Assembly: GCA_020637775.1 (NCBI GenBank)
Contig: JACKJV010000001.1
Coordinates: forward strand, 1 to 64,000
Reading direction: 5' to 3'
Source: Brucellaceae bacterium
GTDB lineage: Bacteria > Pseudomonadota > Alphaproteobacteria > Rhizobiales > Rhizobiaceae
Length of the DNA stretch: 64,000 nt
Below are positions 11,078 through 20,700 of this stretch, piece after piece; positions within the stretch are counted from its first letter, which is position 1, and every line of letters begins with the position of its first letter. Under the pieces are notes generated by a model. It ran no database searches. It worked only from the letters and a program-made list of their open reading frames with translations, and had not been told where the DNA came from. The translations under genes and the position numbers were made by a program.

Positions 11078-11220
11078 CGGTGCCGGTCTTCGCTGATCCA
11101 CCCCGTTGCTGTCTCTTGGACCGGAGCGGTTTTCATGGCAAGGTCGCAGACGAAAAAACTGTGCCGGCAGTGCTTGCGCACCGGCCGTCTCTGTGGCAGA
11201 AGTCCGCCGCATCGAAGAGC

Positions 11221-11295
<75 letters not shown>

Positions 11296-11823
11296 TTAAA
11301 AATCCCTCAAAATCAATTTCTTGCGGCTGCAAACTGGCTGCGGCACGCCTGCTTGCTCTGTTGTCCATTCTGTAAGAAGCGGAACGCTGGACGAACCCGC
11401 AGCCGCCTTCGGGGAGCGGTGGGGGGGGAAGTCGGGGGCGGCTGTTCTCCATCCGCACGCGCATGACGATGCGACGTTTCCAATGCTTGTGCCTGAATTT
11501 CTCAATACCGCCGGACTGGCTGACGGTCCGGCGGCGGTCAGGCCGGTTATCGAAATCGCTTATTCGCTTATAAGTTCAGTTCGCCATATCCGCGTTTTCG
11601 AATTCTGGCGCCGCCGGCCTTTCAGGCGGTCAGCCGCCTGATTCCGGATCAACGGGGCGAGTTTGTCCATTTGCAGCGCATATGAAGGCGGAGCTTCCGC
11701 GGCCCCCTGCCGGTTCCTGACCGTTTGCGCCGCGCCCGCCGGCAGCCGCACGGGCGGCAGAGCTGGTGCGACTGGCCGCGCATACCGGATTCCCGACGCG
11801 TCCCGGCCGGTGTGACGGCCGGC
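11296..11823. other. 528-bp leader region with two strong hairpins, no supported gene
   Basis: This lies between tRNA-Thr and the surface-glycan operon. Open frames here lack ribosome-binding sites and have poor codon usage. Two inverted repeats stand out: 11508-11534 (9-bp stem CCGCCGGAC/GTCCGGCGG) and 11622-11641 (8-bp perfect stem TCAGGCGG/CCGCCTGA with TCAG loop). Neither is followed by a T-run on either strand. Between them is a lower-GC stretch (about 11548-11605) that could hold the operon promoter. Confidence 0.5.
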
Positions 11824-12969
11824 ATGCCCAAGCCGCTCGTCCTGTCCTTCCTGCCTCAAGAAAAGCCGCACGAAATCCTCGTGCAGGCGTCCGCCGGTCG
11901 GCGTGGACTGTTCCTGACCCGGTTTACCTGCCGCTCGGGACACACATTGCGGCCAAGTGGCGATGCACTCGTCTGTCTCGGCCTCTACCCTGCCGCTGAA
12001 ATCGGGGCAGACCTGCATGTGAAGGGTGCGGTTTCGCCGTGCCTGCGCTCGAACGCCCGGGCGATCAATCGCCTCTACAGGCGCTGGTGGCCATCCTGCC
12101 GCAACGTGGCAGTCGTTGCGCCGGAAGGCGTGAGCATGCCGGCGCAGGTGGCGCGGGGAACCGGCCTGTTTTTCTCCGGCGGCGCGGATTCAGCCTTTTC
12201 ACTTGCCGATGCGGCTGCGCGCGTCTCGTCGCTCATCACGCTCATCGGGGTCGACATGCCGCTTTCCGACAGCGCGGAAACCGCGCGGCTGGAGGCTTTG
12301 GCGAGAGAGGTTGCGCAAGCGAAAGGACTGGACTCCATCGTCATCGAAACCGATGTCAGTTCAACCTTCCACGCCTTTGCAAGCTGGATCGAACACCACG
12401 GCGCGGTACTGGCCGCGATCGGCCACATGCTGTCGGACCATCTGGAGCGCGTGTTGATCGCCTCATCGGGCAACGAGACCGCATGGGACGTGCCCTGGGG
12501 CTCGCATCCGGGCCTCGATCCGCTTTTCGGCAGCCAGGCCTTGGCCGTCGAGCATCACGGGCTGGTGTCGCGTTTCGACAAGATCGCCCGCGTTGCAGGT
12601 GACGACGTGCTGCTCAGCCGCCTGCGCGTCTGCAACAAGGCAAGGCGAAATTGCGGCATGTGCAGCAAGTGCACCTTTGCCATGCGCTCGCTCGACATCC
12701 TCGGTGCCAAGGCAAGGGCCAGCAGTTTTCCGCCCTTCGAACCGCGGCGCGGAGCGTTCGGGATCTCCGACGACGCGTCGCTCGACGAGCACGAACGGTT
12801 GCGCGATGCCGCGATGGCGGCGGGACGCGCCGACCTGCTGCCCGAGATCGAAGAAGCGATCGGCGCCTACCGGCATCGCACCCGGCGGCAGCGGTTTGGC
12901 GGCGAAGGCCTGCGTATCCGGGCGCGCGTCATGCGCCACCGGCTGCGCTGGTGGCGGGCATCCCTATGA
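11824..12969 (+). CDS. QueC-like PP-loop ATPase, putative surface-glycan cassette protein
   Basis: 381 residues from ATG 11824; the start is uncertain (GTG at 11812 is also possible, and neither has a strong ribosome-binding site). An N-terminal region of about 110 residues is unrecognised. A PP-loop SGGADS follows at 118-123, the ATP pyrophosphatase signature of QueC, GuaA and asparagine synthetase. Cys270, 277, 280 and 283 (C-x6-C-x2-C-x2-C) resemble the zinc site of QueC. These enzymes adenylate a carboxylate or carbonyl. Nothing for queuosine synthesis is nearby. The stop overlaps the next start (ATGA), so it is coupled to the GT25 gene and probably activates or modifies a sugar or lipid in the same pathway. 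Confidence 0.75.
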   Translation: MPKPLVLSFLPQEKPHEILVQASAGRRGLFLTRFTCRSGHTLRPSGDALVCLGLYPAAEIGADLHVKGAVSPCLRSNARAINRLYRRWWPSCRNVAVVAPEGVSMPAQVARGTGLFFSGGADSAFSLADAAARVSSLITLIGVDMPLSDSAETARLEALAREVAQAKGLDSIVIETDVSSTFHAFASWIEHHGAVLAAIGHMLSDHLERVLIASSGNETAWDVPWGSHPGLDPLFGSQALAVEHHGLVSRFDKIARVAGDDVLLSRLRVCNKARRNCGMCSKCTFAMRSLDILGAKARASSFPPFEPRRGAFGISDDASLDEHERLRDAAMAAGRADLLPEIEEAIGAYRHRTRRQRFGGEGLRIRARVMRHRLRWWRASL

Positions 12970-13694
12970 CATTGCCTGCCTATATCATTCATCTGGAGCG
13001 CGCGAAATCCCGACGCCCGCAGGCCGAAGCGCTGCGGGCTTCGCTCGGCCCGGCGGCGCAAATCCTTCCGGCGGTGGACGGGCAAATCCTCAGCGACAGC
13101 AACATCGCCCATGTCCTCGGCCCGTGCCGGGCCACGCGTTACCCGTTCCCGCTGCGTCCGGCCGAAATCGCGACATTCCTCAGCCATCGCAAGTGCTGGC
13201 AGCGGCTTCTGGAAGACGGGCACGAGGCCGCCCTTATCGTCGAAGACGACATTGCCACCACCGCCACCTTCAGCCCAGCCTGCGCGCTCGCACTCGAACA
13301 GATCGTCCAGGGACAGTTCGTTCGCTTTCCCGGCAAGAAGCGCGAGGCGGGAGAAGTCCTTGCCGCTGCAGATGGCGTAGAACTTTTCAGGCCGCAGAGG
13401 GTCGCCTTGGGCATGCTGGCGCAAATCGTCACGCGCGAAGCCGCGGCGCGGCTGCTCGCCGCCTCCACTGTTTTCGACCGCCCGGTGGACACGTTCCTGC
13501 AATTGCGCTGGGTGCACGGGGCCGACGTCGTGTCGGTCTGGCCATCGGGGATCAGCGAGATCTCGGCCGATCTGGGTGGCAGCACGATCCATGCGAACAT
13601 GCCCTGGCCGACCAAGCTTCGCCGCGAGATCCTGCGGCCGCTCTACCGGTTGTCGATCCGCCTGCAATCCGACCGGCACAACAATGCTTCGTAA
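12966..13694 (+). CDS. Glycosyltransferase family 25 (LPS/glycan type)
   Basis: 242 residues. It starts TLPAYIIHLERAKSRR, the GT25 N-terminus, and has LSHRKCWQRLLE with the metal/nucleotide motif IVEDDI (EDD at 93-95). Bacterial GT25 enzymes add galactose or similar sugars to lipooligosaccharide or other glycans in the cytosol. The start overlaps the PP-loop gene by 4 bp and the end overlaps the pyruvyl transferase gene by 11 bp, showing a tight operon. Confidence 0.88.
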   Translation: MTLPAYIIHLERAKSRRPQAEALRASLGPAAQILPAVDGQILSDSNIAHVLGPCRATRYPFPLRPAEIATFLSHRKCWQRLLEDGHEAALIVEDDIATTATFSPACALALEQIVQGQFVRFPGKKREAGEVLAAADGVELFRPQRVALGMLAQIVTREAAARLLAASTVFDRPVDTFLQLRWVHGADVVSVWPSGISEISADLGGSTIHANMPWPTKLRREILRPLYRLSIRLQSDRHNNAS

Positions 13695-14478
13695 GGCGCG
13701 CAAGATCTCGCGCCATTGGCGGGCCCGGCTGCGTCCGGGCGCCCATGCGCCGCTCTTCTGGCATATCGGAACCCCGAATTTCGGCGACGACATCAATCCC
13801 GCCTTTTTCGAGGCGTTGAGCGGCAAGCGCCTGCGGTTTGCCAACGACCGGCGCGCGCCGCACTTCCTGGGCATGGGCAGCATCCTGAAATCCGCGACCG
13901 AAGCCTCCGTGGTTCTCGGCGCCGGATTGCTTGAACCGGCGGCGGGCAAAATGCCGGGCACGGTCGTTGCCTTGCGGGGGCATCTTTCGCGCAGGGCGCT
14001 CGCCATCGCCGACACCATCCCGCTCGGCGATCCCATGGTCCTTGTCGACCGCCTGATCAGGCCCGAGCGTGGCCACGACATCGGCTTCGTGCCCCATGCG
14101 CGGGCGCTTCCCCGGCTGCGCAAACAGGTGCCGGCGGGCATGCACCTGATCGATGTGAGCCGCGATCCCTGGCTTGTCTTGCGGGACATCGGGCGCTGCA
14201 GGGTCATCCTCAGCCAGTCACTGCATGGCCTCATCGCCGCCGATGCCTTCGGGATTCCGAACATATGGCTTGCCCCGAGCCTGGAAATGGCAGGCGGAGC
14301 TTTCAAGTTCCACGACTATTTCTCGACGCTCGACGAAGGCAAGACCGCGGTCGAGATCACCTCCCGCCTGCTTCGTGAACCGCCATTGCATCTGGCAACG
14401 GTCAGCCGCTACGCGGGCAACAAGGCCGAGTATCACGCGATCCTGCGGGCGGCGGTGCGGGAAGGAACGGCCGGATGA
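13684..14478 (+). CDS. Polysaccharide pyruvyl transferase family protein
   Basis: 264 residues. WHIGTPNFGDDINP at the N-terminus and RVILSQSLHGLIAADAFGIP near the C-terminus are the hallmarks of the CsaB/WcaK/ExoV family, which uses PEP to add ketal pyruvate to sugars; some members act as glycosyltransferases. The ATG lies inside the end of the GT25 gene and the stop overlaps the ligase start (ATGA). Pyruvate would add negative charge to a surface glycan. Confidence 0.88.
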   Translation: MLRKARKISRHWRARLRPGAHAPLFWHIGTPNFGDDINPAFFEALSGKRLRFANDRRAPHFLGMGSILKSATEASVVLGAGLLEPAAGKMPGTVVALRGHLSRRALAIADTIPLGDPMVLVDRLIRPERGHDIGFVPHARALPRLRKQVPAGMHLIDVSRDPWLVLRDIGRCRVILSQSLHGLIAADAFGIPNIWLAPSLEMAGGAFKFHDYFSTLDEGKTAVEITSRLLREPPLHLATVSRYAGNKAEYHAILRAAVREGTAG

Positions 14479-15782
14479 AACCACCGCGCATTGCGGAATG
14501 GGTGTGGTCCCTGCGGCTCAGGCTCGTGCGTCCCTTGCGCATCCGGATGGCCGGGCTGACGCGCGCCAGGGCGCGCGGGCGCTTTGTCGCGGTGACGGGC
14601 AGTTCGGCGAAATCCACGACAACCATGCTCATCGCGGCCATCCTGGACGACGAGGGAAACGTGCTCAACCAGGTGTTCGAAAACACCATCAATCCGCTCA
14701 TCCGCACAATCCGCCGATCGCGCATTGCCGATTTCGTGGTGGTGGAGACCGGCGTGGGCGGCAAGGGCCAGATGAGCACGATGGCCGGGCTGCTGAAACC
14801 GGATGTCAGTGTCGTGACCATGGTCGGCCTGGAGCATTACAGTGCATTTCGCTCAAGGGAGGCGATTGCCACAGAAAAAGGCGCGCTGGTTGCCGCGACC
14901 GCTCCGGACGGCCTTGCCGTGCTGAACGCCGACGATCCGCTGACAATGGGCATGGCAGAACGAACCCCCGCGCGGATCGTCACCTTTGGCCACGGATCGC
15001 AGGCGGATTGCCGCATTCTCCGCGTCACCGGGGATGCACAGGAGGGTGTCACCGTTCATCTCGCCTGGCGCGGACAGGAAATTGCTGTCAAAACGCAGTT
15101 TGCCGGGGCGCATTTCGCCATTCCGGTCGCGGCCGCCGCGGTCACCGGACTTGAACTCGGCGTGCCGCCCGAGCGGATTCGCACGGCGATCGCCGGTTGC
15201 GCGCCCCCGTTCCTGAGGCTCAGCCGCCATCACATTGCCGGCGGACCTGTGTTTCTGGCCGATTGCGCCAAGGCACCGCAAGGGACGCTGCATCTTGCCT
15301 TCGACGCCCTTGGCCGAACCCCGGCACCCCGCCGGCGGATCGTGCTCGGTACGATTTCCGACTATCGCGGCAACAGGCGCCGCGCCTATCGCAACGCCAT
15401 CGAGCAGGCGCTTCTCGTCGCCGACGAAGTGATCCTGCTGTCGGAGTCAGGCTACGGGTTCGACTATCTGCGCGACAGGAGCGCTGAACGCCGGGTGAAG
15501 GTTTTCGCCGAAATACGCGACGCCAGCATCTACATTGCAGGCACAGCAGTGAAAGACGAAGTCATCCTTCTCAAGGGATCACAGAGCAATCATCTGGAGC
15601 GGATCCTTCTGGCGCAGACCGAGGGGGTCAATTGCTGGGAAAGGGCCTGTGGCAAGGGCATCGGCTGCGTCGAATGCGGTCTGTTCGGCCATGATTTCGC
15701 ACGGCATCGTGCCACCGGTCGCCGAAGTCGGTTGCGGCGCCTGACCGGGCGGGCGATGCGAGGCGGCAGAGGCGTGGCCTGA
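14475..15782 (+). CDS. MurF-like Mur-ligase family protein with Cys4 tail
   Basis: 435 residues. ATP loop TGSSAKSTT (41-49, Lys46), central ligase residues around Glu91 and GLEHYSAF (His121), a TEKG lysine (135, the position often carbamylated), NADDP (151-155), and a C-terminal ligase domain with LADCAKAP in place of MurF's D-x-Y-N-A-N-P. After residue 385 there is a tail with Cys387, 392, 398 and 401 and then an Arg-rich end. Mur ligases join an amino acid or peptide to a carboxylate. Being last in a glycan operon, it may attach an amino acid to a sugar or carrier. It is not one of the housekeeping MurC-F set by sequence or context. Confidence 0.85.
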   Translation: MKPPRIAEWVWSLRLRLVRPLRIRMAGLTRARARGRFVAVTGSSAKSTTTMLIAAILDDEGNVLNQVFENTINPLIRTIRRSRIADFVVVETGVGGKGQMSTMAGLLKPDVSVVTMVGLEHYSAFRSREAIATEKGALVAATAPDGLAVLNADDPLTMGMAERTPARIVTFGHGSQADCRILRVTGDAQEGVTVHLAWRGQEIAVKTQFAGAHFAIPVAAAAVTGLELGVPPERIRTAIAGCAPPFLRLSRHHIAGGPVFLADCAKAPQGTLHLAFDALGRTPAPRRRIVLGTISDYRGNRRRAYRNAIEQALLVADEVILLSESGYGFDYLRDRSAERRVKVFAEIRDASIYIAGTAVKDEVILLKGSQSNHLERILLAQTEGVNCWERACGKGIGCVECGLFGHDFARHRATGRRSRLRRLTGRAMRGGRGVA

Positions 15783-15863
15783 AACAAGCACCGTCGCTGT
15801 CGCCTTCGACATGGGCAAACCCTTCTGGCGCGACCTGGCGGTGTTCGGCCGAAGCGAACCGTT

Positions 15864-16928
15864 CTAGGGCCGGGCAGGCTCCGTCTGCGCGGGCTGGGTC
15901 CATTCCTCCGGTTCGGGCGGTTCGATCCCCGGCCCGCTTGCCACGGCGCGGCGGCGGGTCAGCCGCTCTTCCCAGGCCAGGGCGCTGGACACGATGCCTT
16001 CCAGCGATGCATGGCGCGGCTGCCAGCCCAGCAGATCCCGGGCGCGGGCGGCATCGGCCACCACGGCCACCGGATCGCCCGGCCTGCGGCCTTCCTGGCG
16101 AAGCGCGAAATCGCGGCCGGAAACACGGCGCACGCATTCGATCACCTCACGCACGGAGAAGCCGTCGCCATAGCCGAGATTGGCAACCAGGCTGTTGCCG
16201 CCGGCGCGCAGATAGCCCAGCGCCAGCCAATGTGCCTCGACAAGGTCGGCGACATGAATGAAATCCCGGATGCAGGTGCCGTCGCGGGTCGGATAATCGG
16301 TGCCGAAGACGCTCATGGCGGCGCGCTTGCCGACCGCTGTCTCGCAGGCCACCTTGAGCAGATGCGTGGCGCCGGGCGTGGACTGGCCCGTCCGCCCCGC
16401 CGGATCGGCACCGGACACGTTGAAATAACGCAGGGCGGCATAGCGGAAATCATGGGCATCCGCGGCATCGCGCAGCATCATCTCGCTCATCAGCTTGGAG
16501 CGGCCATAGGGACTGGCGGGTTCCAGCGGGGCATCCTCGGCAAGCGGCGTCCCGTCGCTCTGGGCATAGACGGCCGCGGTGGAGGAAAACACCAGGTTGC
16601 GTATGCCCGTGTCGATGGCTGCTTCCAGCAGGCCGCGGGTGGCGCAGGTGTTGTTCTCGTAGTAGCCGAGCGGATCGGCCACCGATTCCGGCACCACGAC
16701 GGATCCGGCAAAATGCAGGATCGCATCGACCTTTTCCTCACGCAGGATGCGGCGTACCATCATCGTGTCGGCGATGTCGCCGACGACGAGACGCGCGGCG
16801 GGCGCAACGGCCCATGCATGACCGGTCGACAGCCGGTCGATGACCACCACCCTCTCGCCCGCGTCCACAAGGCGCCAGACCATGTGACTGCCGATATAAC
16901 CGGCGCCGCCCGTCACCAGAACCGCCAT
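15864..16928 (-). CDS. galE: UDP-glucose 4-epimerase GalE
   Basis: 354 residues. NAD-binding GGAGYIGSH at the start, SSTAAVY and YGRSK (catalytic Tyr/Lys) in the middle, RYFNVSGADP later. It interconverts UDP-glucose and UDP-galactose. Two close ATGs exist; 16928 has GGAGG at the right distance. A Pro/Glu-rich tail of about 25 residues extends past the usual end. It converges on the Mur-ligase gene 81 bp away and can supply UDP-galactose to the GT25 enzyme. Confidence 0.95.
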   Translation of the reverse strand: MAVLVTGGAGYIGSHMVWRLVDAGERVVVIDRLSTGHAWAVAPAARLVVGDIADTMMVRRILREEKVDAILHFAGSVVVPESVADPLGYYENNTCATRGLLEAAIDTGIRNLVFSSTAAVYAQSDGTPLAEDAPLEPASPYGRSKLMSEMMLRDAADAHDFRYAALRYFNVSGADPAGRTGQSTPGATHLLKVACETAVGKRAAMSVFGTDYPTRDGTCIRDFIHVADLVEAHWLALGYLRAGGNSLVANLGYGDGFSVREVIECVRRVSGRDFALRQEGRRPGDPVAVVADAARARDLLGWQPRHASLEGIVSSALAWEERLTRRRAVASGPGIEPPEPEEWTQPAQTEPARP

Positions 16929-17118
16929 TGCCATGCCTCCATCGCGGATGAAGACCTGAGGGCTGCCCCATGCGCCCTGCCCCATCCTTGTTGCAGGCAG
17001 GATAGTGGCGGCGCGTTGAAATCCCGCGATCACGGGCGGCTGCCTTTTAGGCAATCGGGCAAGGATATCTTCACCGTGGTGCCGCCGGCAGGGCAGCCGG
17101 CGGCGGCGATGAAAGCGG

Positions 17119-17547
17119 TCAGCCCTTCCGGTTCACCAGCGCATCGCGAATCTCGGTGAGAAGCAGGATATCTGCCGGCGGCGGCGCGTCCGGGGAGGGT
17201 GTTTCCGGTTCTTCCATGGTGCGGCGGATGTTGTTGACCATGCGGACCATCATGAAGATGATGAAGGCCAGGATGAGGAAATTGAGCGCAACGGTGATGA
17301 AATTGCCATAGGCCAGCACCGCGCCCTGTTCTCGCGCGGCCTCCAGGGTATCGGCGGTCACGCCGGATGCCAGCGGGATGAAGTAGTCGGAAAAATCGAA
17401 ACCGCCGAAAATGGCGCCGACAACCGGCATGATGATGTCGTCGGTTAGCGACTTGACGATGAGGGCGAAGGCGCCGCCAATGATGACGCCGACAGCCAGG
17501 TCCATGACATTGCCCTTGGCAATGAACGCCTTGAATTCCTTCAACAT
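17119..17547 (-). CDS. mscL: Large-conductance mechanosensitive channel MscL
   Basis: 142 residues. It starts [24 protein letters not shown], the MscL N-terminus and pore helix, with a second span ([18 protein letters not shown]). Homopentameric inner-membrane channel opened by hypo-osmotic stress. Confidence 0.97.
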
Positions 17548-17777
17548 GGTTTATCCCTTTTTCATGCTCCAGGCCGGTTGCGGCCATGCTTGTGCTTGAC
17601 ACGTCAAGTCATAGCGCCATGACACGCTCAATAGAACTGCATAATATTTGCCCGAGGATGACGCGATGGCCGCAAGCGTGACGGCATGACCGGGCGGGGC
17701 CGACTCGCGCATCGGCCCGCGATCTTCTATGACTGGCAGACAAGGGGTTGACCGGTGAAGCGGAGGAGCGGGGCCGG

Positions 17778-20700
17778 ATGAACAGCTGGGTGATCATTTT
17801 CACGGCGCTGGCCTATCTGTCGCTGTTGTTCGCCATTGCGAGCTGGGGCGACAAGCGGCGCAAGGTGAGCGCAGGCCAGTACCGGCCAATGGTCTATTCG
17901 CTCAGCCTGGCCGTCTATTGCACCTCCTGGACATTTTTCGGCTCCGTCGGCCTGGCCTCCGAACGCGGGCTTGAATTCCTGACCATCTATATCGGGCCGA
18001 TCCTGGTCTATCTCTTCGGTCACCGCATGCTGCGCCGCATCCTGCGGGTCTCGAAGGCCGAGCGCATCACCTCCATCGCCGACTTCCTGGCGGCCCGCTA
18101 TGGCAAGAGCTTCTCGGTGGCGGCGCTGGCCACCGTGATCGCGACAGTGGGTACCGTTCCCTATATCGCGCTGCAGCTCAAGGCCGTTTCCGGTTCCATC
18201 GAATTGATGATCGCGCATGAAAGCGCCGGCGCCGCGGTGCCGATTCCCGGCGACATGGCGCTGACGGTCGCCGCCCTGCTGGCCCTGTTCGCGATCCTTT
18301 TCGGAACGCGGCATGCCGATGCCACAGAGCACCAGGACGGCATGGTCATGGCCATCGCCGTGGAATCGATCATCAAGCTGGTTGCCTTCCTGGCGATCGG
18401 TGTTGCGGTCACCTTCTTCATGTTCGATACGCCGAAGACGCTTCTGGAGGCGATGCAGGCCAATGAACGGGTGCAGGCGGCGCTGACCTATGAAACGAGC
18501 CTGACGACATGGATCGTCATGACCATGCTCAGCGGCATGGCGATCCTGTTGCTGCCGCGCCAGTTCTACATCTCGGTCGTGGAGAACCGCTCCGAACGGG
18601 AACTGGACACCGCCACCTGGCTGTTTCCGCTCTATCTCGTGGCCATCAACATCTTCGTTCTTCCCATCGCCTTCGCCGGCATCACCACAATCGGCAACCA
18701 GGCCAGCGCCGACCTCTACGTGCTGGCATTGCCGCTGGTGCGCGGCAACGACTTCCTCGCACTGATCTCGCTGATCGGCGGCATGTCGGCTGCCACGGCT
18801 ATGGTCATCGTGGCCAGCGTGGCGCTGTCGATCATGATCTCCAACGACCTCGTGATCCCGGTCCTGCTGAAACGTGCCGCCATCCCCACTGCCGGCGAAA
18901 AGGAGGACTGGTCACGCATCATCCTCAACGTGCGGCGCGCCGCCATCTGCCTCATTCTTGTCGCGGCCCTTTTGTATCATCGCGAGATCGCCGACAACAT
19001 CCGCCTCGCCTCCATCGGGCTTTTGTCCTTTGCCGCGCTGGCGCAGTTCGCGCCCGCCTTCCTCGGCGCCCTGCTGTGGCGCGGCGCCAATGCCCGCGGC
19101 GCGGTGATGGGAATGACCGCCGGCATTCTCGTCTGGGGCTACACGCTGCTGCTGCCGTCCTTCCTGCCGGACAATGCGCATCTTCTCATGGACGGTCCCT
19201 GGGGATTTGCCGCGCTGCGGCCGGAAGCGCTGTTCGGCGTGGAGGCGGAACCGCTGAACCACGGCGTCCTGTGGAGCCTGGCAGCCAATGCGCTGTTCTT
19301 CATCATGGGCTGTTTGTCTCGCGCAGCCACGCCGCGCGAACGCATCCAGGCAGCCATCTTCGTGCCGCGCGAGAGCGCGCAGATCCCCGGCCTGCGCCGG
19401 TTCCGCACGGCGGTGACCAACAACGAACTGAAGGACACGATCTCGCGTTATCTGGGCGCGGAGCGGACCGAGCGCTCGTTCCAGTCGTTCGAACAGAACG
19501 AAGGGCGGAAATACATGGGATCGCAGATCGCCGATGCCGGCACGATCCGCTTCGCGGAGCAATTGCTGGCCAGCGCCGTCGGCTCGTCCTCGGCGCGGCT
19601 GGTGCTTTCGCTTCTGTTCCAGCGCGTCGATGCCAATTCGCGCAATGCCTACCGGCTGCTCGACGACGCCTCGGAAGCCTTGCAGCAGAACCGCGACCTG
19701 TTGCAGATCGCGCTGGACCAGATGGAAGACGGGATTACCGTTTACGATCAGGATTTCGGCCTTTCCTGCTGGAACCGCCAGTTCCGCACGCTGTTCGACC
19801 TGCCCGACGAGCTGGGCCAGGTCGGCACCTCGATCTCCAAGGTGATCGACTACCTGGTGCGGCGCGGCGACATCGCCAAGGATGACGAGGAAACCATCCT
19901 GGAACGGATGACGGTGACGCACACGACCTGGCAGATGGAACTGCTCAGCACGGGACGCATCATCGAGGTCCGCTCCAACCCGATGCCCAATGGCGGCGTC
20001 GTGGCCAGCTATGCCGACATCACCGACCGCGTGAAGGCGGACCTGGCGCTCAAGCGCGCCAATGAAACGCTGGAGCAGCGGGTGGCTGCGCGCACGGCGG
20101 AACTGCTGGAACTGAACGAGGAACTGGCGCAGGCGCAGCGCCTCGCCGAGGAAGCCAATCTCGGCAAGACCCGCTTCCTGGCCGGCGCGGGCCATGACAT
20201 CCTGCAACCGCTCAACGCCGCGCGCCTCTACTGCTCGGCCCTGAAGGAATCCATCTCCGACCAGAACACGCGCTCGGCCCTTTCCAATATCGATTCCTCA
20301 CTCGATTCGGTGGAAACGATCCTTGGCGCGGTGCTCGACATTTCCCGCCTCGACACGGGCGCCATGAAGCCGAAGGAAAGCATTTTCCGGCTCGACGCCA
20401 TGCTTGAGCAATTGCGCAACGATTTCCTGCCGTCAGCGCGCGAAAAGGGGCTGGATCTGAGGATCGTGCCCTCCAGCCTGAATATCGAAACCGACCGGAA
20501 CCTGTTCCGGCGGGTGCTGCAGAACCTGGTTTCCAATGCCATCAAGTACACGCGCAGCGGCAAGGTCGTGGTGGGGGTGCGCCGGCGCGGCCGGCTATGC
20601 GAAATCCAGGTCATCGATACCGGCATCGGCATCCGTGCCGACAAGCTGAACACCGTCTTCCGCGAGTTCACGCGGCTGGACGAGGGCGCGCGCGAAGCCG

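What the first reader, a model, noticed from the sequence alone, without database searches (positions are those of the whole stretch)
11824..15782. Four-gene coupled glycan cassette: QueC-like ATPase, GT25, pyruvyl transferase, MurF-like ligase
Every junction overlaps (ATGA at 12966, 11 bp at 13684, ATGA at 14475), so the four proteins are made together. A PP-loop adenylating enzyme and a Mur-type amide ligase, added to a sugar transferase and a PEP-dependent pyruvyl transferase, suggest a surface glycan carrying both pyruvate and an amino-acid or amide group. I do not know a described pathway with this set. galE beside it can supply UDP-galactose.
Basis: partly seen in the sequence, partly recalled or inferred. 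Interest (0 to 1): 0.72.

Follow-up and report, generated by a model that had tools for sequence, protein, structure and literature searches.

The report
Mobile amide-forming surface-glycan gene cassette
Four overlapping bacterial genes that recur together pair sugar-modifying enzymes with two unusual predicted amide-bond makers, one of them folded like a phage-defence enzyme, and probably decorate the cell's outer surface with a chemical group whose identity is still unknown.

Summary

The set is rare and patchy but recurs. Of 27 loci with a close gene-1 relative (window included), 21 have a related Mur gene linked and 16 have all four families; the exact order and strand is seen in three (window, Cereibacter, Gemmobacter). 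In 199 genomes of one family, all 7 carriers of gene 1 are among the 12 carriers of gene 4. Some relatives add a formyltransferase, an acyltransferase, or (five loci) four to five further amide- or peptide-forming enzymes. In Desulfuromonas a Mur/gene-1 pair lies inside the LPS inner-core locus.

Best reading: a transferable module decorating LPS or another surface glycan: GT25 adds a hexose, the PF04230 protein a pyruvate ketal, and the two ATP-dependent enzymes form amides. Substrates are untested. The galE link is not conserved. Eight literature searches found no description. New variant of a known kind.

The parts
11824..12969 (+). Gene 1: PP-loop ATPase of the QueC superfamily, overall fold closest to QatC (381 aa)
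12966..13694 (+). Gene 2: GT25 glycosyltransferase (242 aa)
   Evidence: PF01755 E 4.9e-15; best PDB sequence matches are procollagen galactosyltransferase 1, E 2.9e-7; EDD motif at 93-95 invariant in 9 relatives
13684..14478 (+). Gene 3: short PF04230 protein, probable polysaccharide pyruvyl transferase (264 aa)
   Evidence: PF04230 E 1.4e-8; Q-S-L-H-G invariant in 9 aligned relatives
14475..15782 (+). Gene 4: Mur-type ligase without MurF domain 1, with a C-terminal Cys4 motif (435 aa)
   Evidence: PF08245 E 6.3e-27; K46, E91, H121, K135, C387, C392, C398, C401 invariant in 28 relatives; aligns to housekeeping MurF from that protein's residue 144 onward
11221..11295 (+). tRNA-Thr(GGT) upstream (context only)
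   Evidence: ARAGORN, Rfam tRNA 73.8 bits; no tRNA-derived direct repeat listed within 11150-18000
15864..16985 (-). galE, convergent neighbour (context; not part of the conserved unit)
   Evidence: TIGR01179 425.8 bits (scanned as 15864-16931); no close-cassette locus among its cluster members

Best explanation
A horizontally spread accessory operon that decorates a surface glycan, most likely an LPS core or other oligosaccharide. Step 1 (inferred): GT25 adds a hexose, perhaps galactose. Step 2 (inferred): the PF04230 protein puts a pyruvate ketal on it, creating a carboxylate. Step 3 (inferred): the Mur-type ligase, which has the ATP/Mg machinery but not the UDP-MurNAc-binding domain, activates a carboxylate as an acyl phosphate and joins it to an amine. 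Step 4 (inferred): the QatC/QueC-fold enzyme adenylates a second carboxylate and makes another amide. Shown here: the genes, the catalytic motifs, the fold kinship, the recurrent linkage and the glycan context of relatives. Not shown: any substrate, the order of steps, or that the ketal carboxylate is the amidation site (I give that specific version about 0.2).
For: Linkage: of 27 loci with a close gene-1 relative (at least 390 bits, window included), 21 have Mur, 20 a PF04230 protein, 17 GT25 and 16 all four (recounted in 105). Genome surveys: family of G006, gene 1 in 7 and Mur in 12 of 199, the 7 inside the 12; family of G002, gene 1 in 2 and Mur in 3 of 248, the 2 inside the 3. Of 27 PF04230 genes in 15 carrier genomes, 18 lie within 12 kb of a gene-1 or Mur relative, where under 1% of the sequence lies. 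Overlaps conserved. Glycan context: L065 (Desulfuromonas) has PF04230-GT2-Mur-gene 1 between WaaC, RfaP, HldE and GmhB; L171 has a nucleotide-sugar dehydrogenase, GT4, WecB-type epimerase and heparinase-like gene between formyltransferase-gene 1 and GT25-PF04230. Amide chemistry: relatives add ATP-grasp, asparagine-synthase-type, AMP-ligase and GNAT genes.
Against: No flippase, polymerase or initiating transferase was identified beside the window cassette, and the five glycan-type profiles tried found only one weak match in the whole window. The gene families are not strictly tied: GT25 is absent from L001 and L004, six of 27 loci have no linked Mur, and 10 of 44 Mur sequences in the tree are 'solo' by the families searched. 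In L171 the sugar genes lie on the opposite strand. The window PF04230 match covers only part of the profile. L065 is a distant relative (190 bits), so its LPS context may not transfer. The surveys include G002, G003, G006-G008, already known as carriers, so the co-occurrence odds are inflated.
Confidence: 0.5

Rival explanations
1. The genes make a small glycosylated (lipo)peptide-like metabolite rather than decorate a surface glycan.
For: Extended clusters hold AMP-ligase, an LdmS-related ATP-grasp, GNAT/FemAB-type, Asn-synthase-type and a possible lipid A-type acyltransferase; no polymer machinery was identified beside the window cassette.
Against: The window has none of those extra genes by profile search; relatives sit in LPS-core and nucleotide-sugar loci; the acyltransferase assignment rests on 1 of 6 members at E 1.1e-4.
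Confidence: 0.22
2. The PF04230 protein is not a pyruvyl transferase but a glycosyltransferase-like protein, so the product has amide groups but no pyruvate.
For: The Pfam match is partial (profile 193-278) and no solved relative was found by sequence.
Against: It is over the family cut-off and keeps the invariant SLHG region.
Confidence: 0.15
3. Gene 1 works like QatC or Cap9: it conjugates a 7-deazaguanine-type carboxylate to an amine (protein or glycan), and the operon is a conjugation or defence module.
For: QatC is the best structural match over residues 1-351; 9 of 9 QatC-type frames that passed my filter carry TTHP or TAHP where this family has GSHP.
Against: The QueC motifs YxQxHxxE, VPxRN and YPDC named in PMC13329287 are absent from gene 1; PADLOC QatC matched 2 of 37 relatives at E up to 1, best 0.034; profile comparison aligned only 28 columns; no QatA, QatB or QatD was identified beside the genes (not searched for by profile).
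Confidence: 0.07
4. The genes merely travel together in glycan islands without acting in one pathway.
For: Patchy distribution, solo Mur genes, a split arrangement in L171.
Against: Conserved overlaps and order in L002, L003 and L079; the same families gathered in different arrangements across Rhodobacterales and Hyphomicrobiales.
Confidence: 0.06

Closest known systems
QatC (qatABCD anti-phage defence)
   Different: Cys motif is C-x6-C-x2-C-x2-C, not the C(x)19CGxCxxRR reported for QatC (PMC13329287, section 7); GT and Mur partners instead of Qat genes; sequence barely detectable
[quoted passage not shown]
   Different: About 110 extra N-terminal residues; YPDC, VPxRN and YxQxHxxE motifs absent; below Pfam cut-off
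MurF
   Same: P-loop, Mg and lysine motifs of the central domain aligned
   Different: No domain 1; extra C-terminal Cys4; 165 bits against a 288.6 cut-off
WbpG-type N-sugar amidotransferases (O-antigen)
   Same: PP-loop enzyme in glycan synthesis
   Different: Described with a CxxC(x)6CxC motif (PMC13329287, section 8); not compared by sequence here
XrtA/PEP-CTERM glycan clusters
   Same: The Asn-synthase-type protein of extended relatives matches TIGR03108; other shared types are recalled
   Different: TIGR03108 304 bits against a cut-off of 817; no exosortase looked for; none of this in the window

Membership tests
QueC | Pfam PF06508 above cut-off | tested here: not met
   10.9 bits against 22
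QueC | SGGxDS P-loop and C(x)8CxxCxxC | tested here: inconclusive
   SGGADS present; cysteines spaced C(x)6CxxCxxC
QueC | YxQxHxxE, VPxRN and YPDC motifs | tested here: not met
   Absent from the gene-1 sequence by reading; motifs from PMC13329287
QatC | QatC fold including the N-terminal extension | tested here: met
QatC | PADLOC QatC model | tested here: not met
   No match for the window protein; 2 of 37 relatives, best E 0.034
QatC | C(x)19CGxCxxRR zinc variant | tested here: not met
   C270/C277/C280/C283
MurF | NCBIfam murF cut-off | tested here: not met
   165.3 bits against 288.6
MurF | N-terminal UDP-binding domain | tested here: not met
   Model aligns only from residue 144 of a housekeeping MurF frame; 45 residues precede the P-loop lysine
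Mur ligase superfamily | Mur_ligase_M with P-loop, Glu, His and Lys | tested here: met
GT25 | PF01755 above cut-off | tested here: met
   56.4 bits against 24
Polysaccharide pyruvyl transferase | PF04230 above cut-off | tested here: met
   35.5 bits against 25.3, partial match
Polysaccharide pyruvyl transferase | PEP-dependent ketal formation | not testable with these tools
   needs an assay

The most novel reading that the evidence does not exclude
A glycan counterpart of peptidoglycan stem synthesis: a PEP-derived carboxylate placed on a surface sugar is extended through amide bonds by a stripped-down Mur ligase and a QatC-fold conjugating enzyme, so that an LPS or other oligosaccharide carries a peptide-like side chain. 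The QatC fold would then be an amine-conjugating scaffold used on glycans as well as on proteins.
Probability: 0.18. Interest if true: 0.85.

Novelty: new variant of a known kind. Interest (0 to 1): 0.6.

Why it matters
It puts a QatC-fold enzyme, so far discussed in the papers I saw as a phage-defence protein, into surface-glycan loci, and pairs it with a Mur ligase freed from its UDP-sugar domain. If right, it defines a testable amide-decoration chemistry of bacterial surfaces and gives functional context for two uncharacterised enzyme subfamilies.

Tried and rejected
Tried without result: whole-genome search of the window's own assembly (none held); tRNA-derived repeats marking an island and a composition shift, neither found; promoter scan (0 promoter-like sites; 2 terminator-like against 4.3 expected); Rfam (the tRNA only); profile comparison of gene 1 with QatC-type frames aligned only 28 columns, probability 87; PDB sequence searches of the acyltransferase-like family (none) and of the PF04230 family (none, 83 two weak matches not credible). 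Papers: eight searches; two returned no paper at all and none of the listings I read described the set. PMC13329287: opening part, sections 7 and 8, and passages read; PMC13279940: abstract and passages; PMC6171495: term search with no hit; all others: listings only.

Rejected: gene 1 as a canonical QueC (cut-off and motifs); gene 4 as a second MurF; galE as part of the conserved unit; broad conservation in Alphaproteobacteria (both genes in 1 of 289 genomes, the centre genome itself).

Caveats on counts: the 27 loci were found through gene 1 and 13 re-fetched copies were merged with their originals; L010 and L017 end near contig ends; L009 and L008 were credited with Mur from wider re-fetched stretches (L128, L133). 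'All four' counts either Mur subtype and either PF04230 subtype. In the comparison of 57 distant gene-1 loci with 20 control stretches (33 of 57 against 2 of 20 with a glycan gene), the profiles were built from those loci and the controls come from five other-purpose genomes, so it is only indicative. L064 and L065 are near copies.

Full report
Observation. The four frames and their overlaps are as described. They lie between a tRNA-Thr gene and a convergent galE, with murA, hisD and a Maf gene upstream, so the surroundings read as housekeeping rather than as a glycan locus.

How far it is conserved. One scan of the species genome collection gave 78 loci, and a plasmid of Gemmobacter aquarius was found separately. 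The exact order QueC-like, GT25, PF04230, Mur on one strand is in the window, Cereibacter ovatus (L002) and Gemmobacter (L079, where the PF04230 frame departs at its 3' end); L003 has the Mur gene flipped; L001 and L004 lack GT25. G239 has GT25-PF04230-Mur followed by a divergent gene-1 relative (49 bits; L115). L005, L021 and L124 have formyltransferase, gene 1, a second Mur subtype, then Mur-GT25-PF04230. Over 27 loci: Mur 21, PF04230 20, GT25 17, all four 16, formyltransferase 11, acyltransferase-like 13. The loci without linked Mur are L010, L016, L017, L018, L019 and L171. Nine of the 22 metagenomic gene-1 hits P0006-P0027 share their longest contig length with one of the first 28 rows of the Mur list, which suggests the same contigs.

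Genome surveys. Family of G006: gene 1 in 7, Mur in 12 of 199 genomes, all 7 within the 12 (hypergeometric 3.6e-10, inflated because G006-G008 were known carriers). In six of the seven the two genes are on one contig within about 13 kb; in G450 they are not. Family of G002: 2 and 3 of 248, the two within the three, again including known carriers. Class of G002: 1 and 1 of 289, the centre itself. The set is therefore rare. Of 27 PF04230 genes in 15 carrier genomes, 18 lie within 12 kb of a gene-1 or Mur relative and 9 do not; about 0.94% of the sequence lies that close.

Two Mur subtypes. A tree of 44 Mur sequences splits into two halves of 22 (both branches 100/100, midpoint root): the window type, with the PF04230 partner of the window kind or solo, and a second type that goes with the extended clusters and includes the Verrucomicrobia and Desulfuromonas sequences. 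Three loci hold both. Ten solo rows have none of the families I searched nearby; in Mesorhizobium they seem to lie among sugar-phosphate genes (read by eye, not searched).

Extended clusters. In L013, L014, L020, L127 and L135 gene 1 and Mur are joined by Asn-synthase-type (TIGR01536 over cut-off), ATP-grasp (PF14397), LdmS-related ATP-grasp (171 bits against 475) and GNAT (PF13480; 'FemAB-like' is my recalled label) genes, and in L013, L014 and L127 also by an AMP-ligase. That concentration of carboxylate-activating enzymes supports amide chemistry.

Glycan context. In Desulfuromonas (L065) PF04230, GT2, Mur and a gene-1 relative lie between heptosyltransferase I, RfaP, a further GT9, HldE and GmhB (the further GT9 is under its cut-off, HldE is 3 bits under the full-length cut-off but over both domain cut-offs). 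In L171 a nucleotide-sugar dehydrogenase, GT4, heparinase-like, WecB-type and bi-domain dehydrogenase genes lie, on the opposite strand, between formyltransferase-gene 1 and GT25-PF04230. Of 57 distant gene-1 loci 33 hold a GT or PF04230 gene against 2 of 20 controls (biased as told).

Mechanism. The window operon needs a precursor glycan made elsewhere. I infer hexose addition (GT25), ketal formation (PF04230), acyl-phosphate amide ligation (Mur) and adenylate-based amide formation (gene 1). Whether the ketal carboxylate is the acceptor is a guess suggested by gene order and by the parallel with muramic acid.

Verdict.

Noticed in passing
L013, L014, L020, L127, L135: A ten-gene cluster with up to seven different carboxylate-activating or amide-forming enzymes around gene-1 and Mur relatives; no description came up in the eight paper searches, none of which targeted it by name.
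   Followed up: partly
L115:10679-11863: A divergent gene-1 relative (49 bits) with SCGIDS in place of SGGxDS, overlapping the Mur gene by ATGA; no Pfam match at E 0.01.
   Followed up: partly
L079:21850-22524: The Gemmobacter PF04230 frame departs from its relatives near its 3' end, so it may be frameshifted.
   Followed up: no
L116, L118, L119, L120: Window-type Mur genes alone, apparently among sugar-phosphate metabolism genes in Mesorhizobium-family genomes, suggesting the ligase can act without the other three.
   Followed up: partly
window:2004-4247: A 747-aa frame with a cytochrome P450 N-terminal half (NCBIfam matches below cut-offs) and an unexamined C-terminal half.
   Followed up: no
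L064 and L065: Near-identical Mur/gene-1 loci filed under a Patescibacteria assembly and a Desulfuromonas genome; one may be mis-binned.
   Followed up: no
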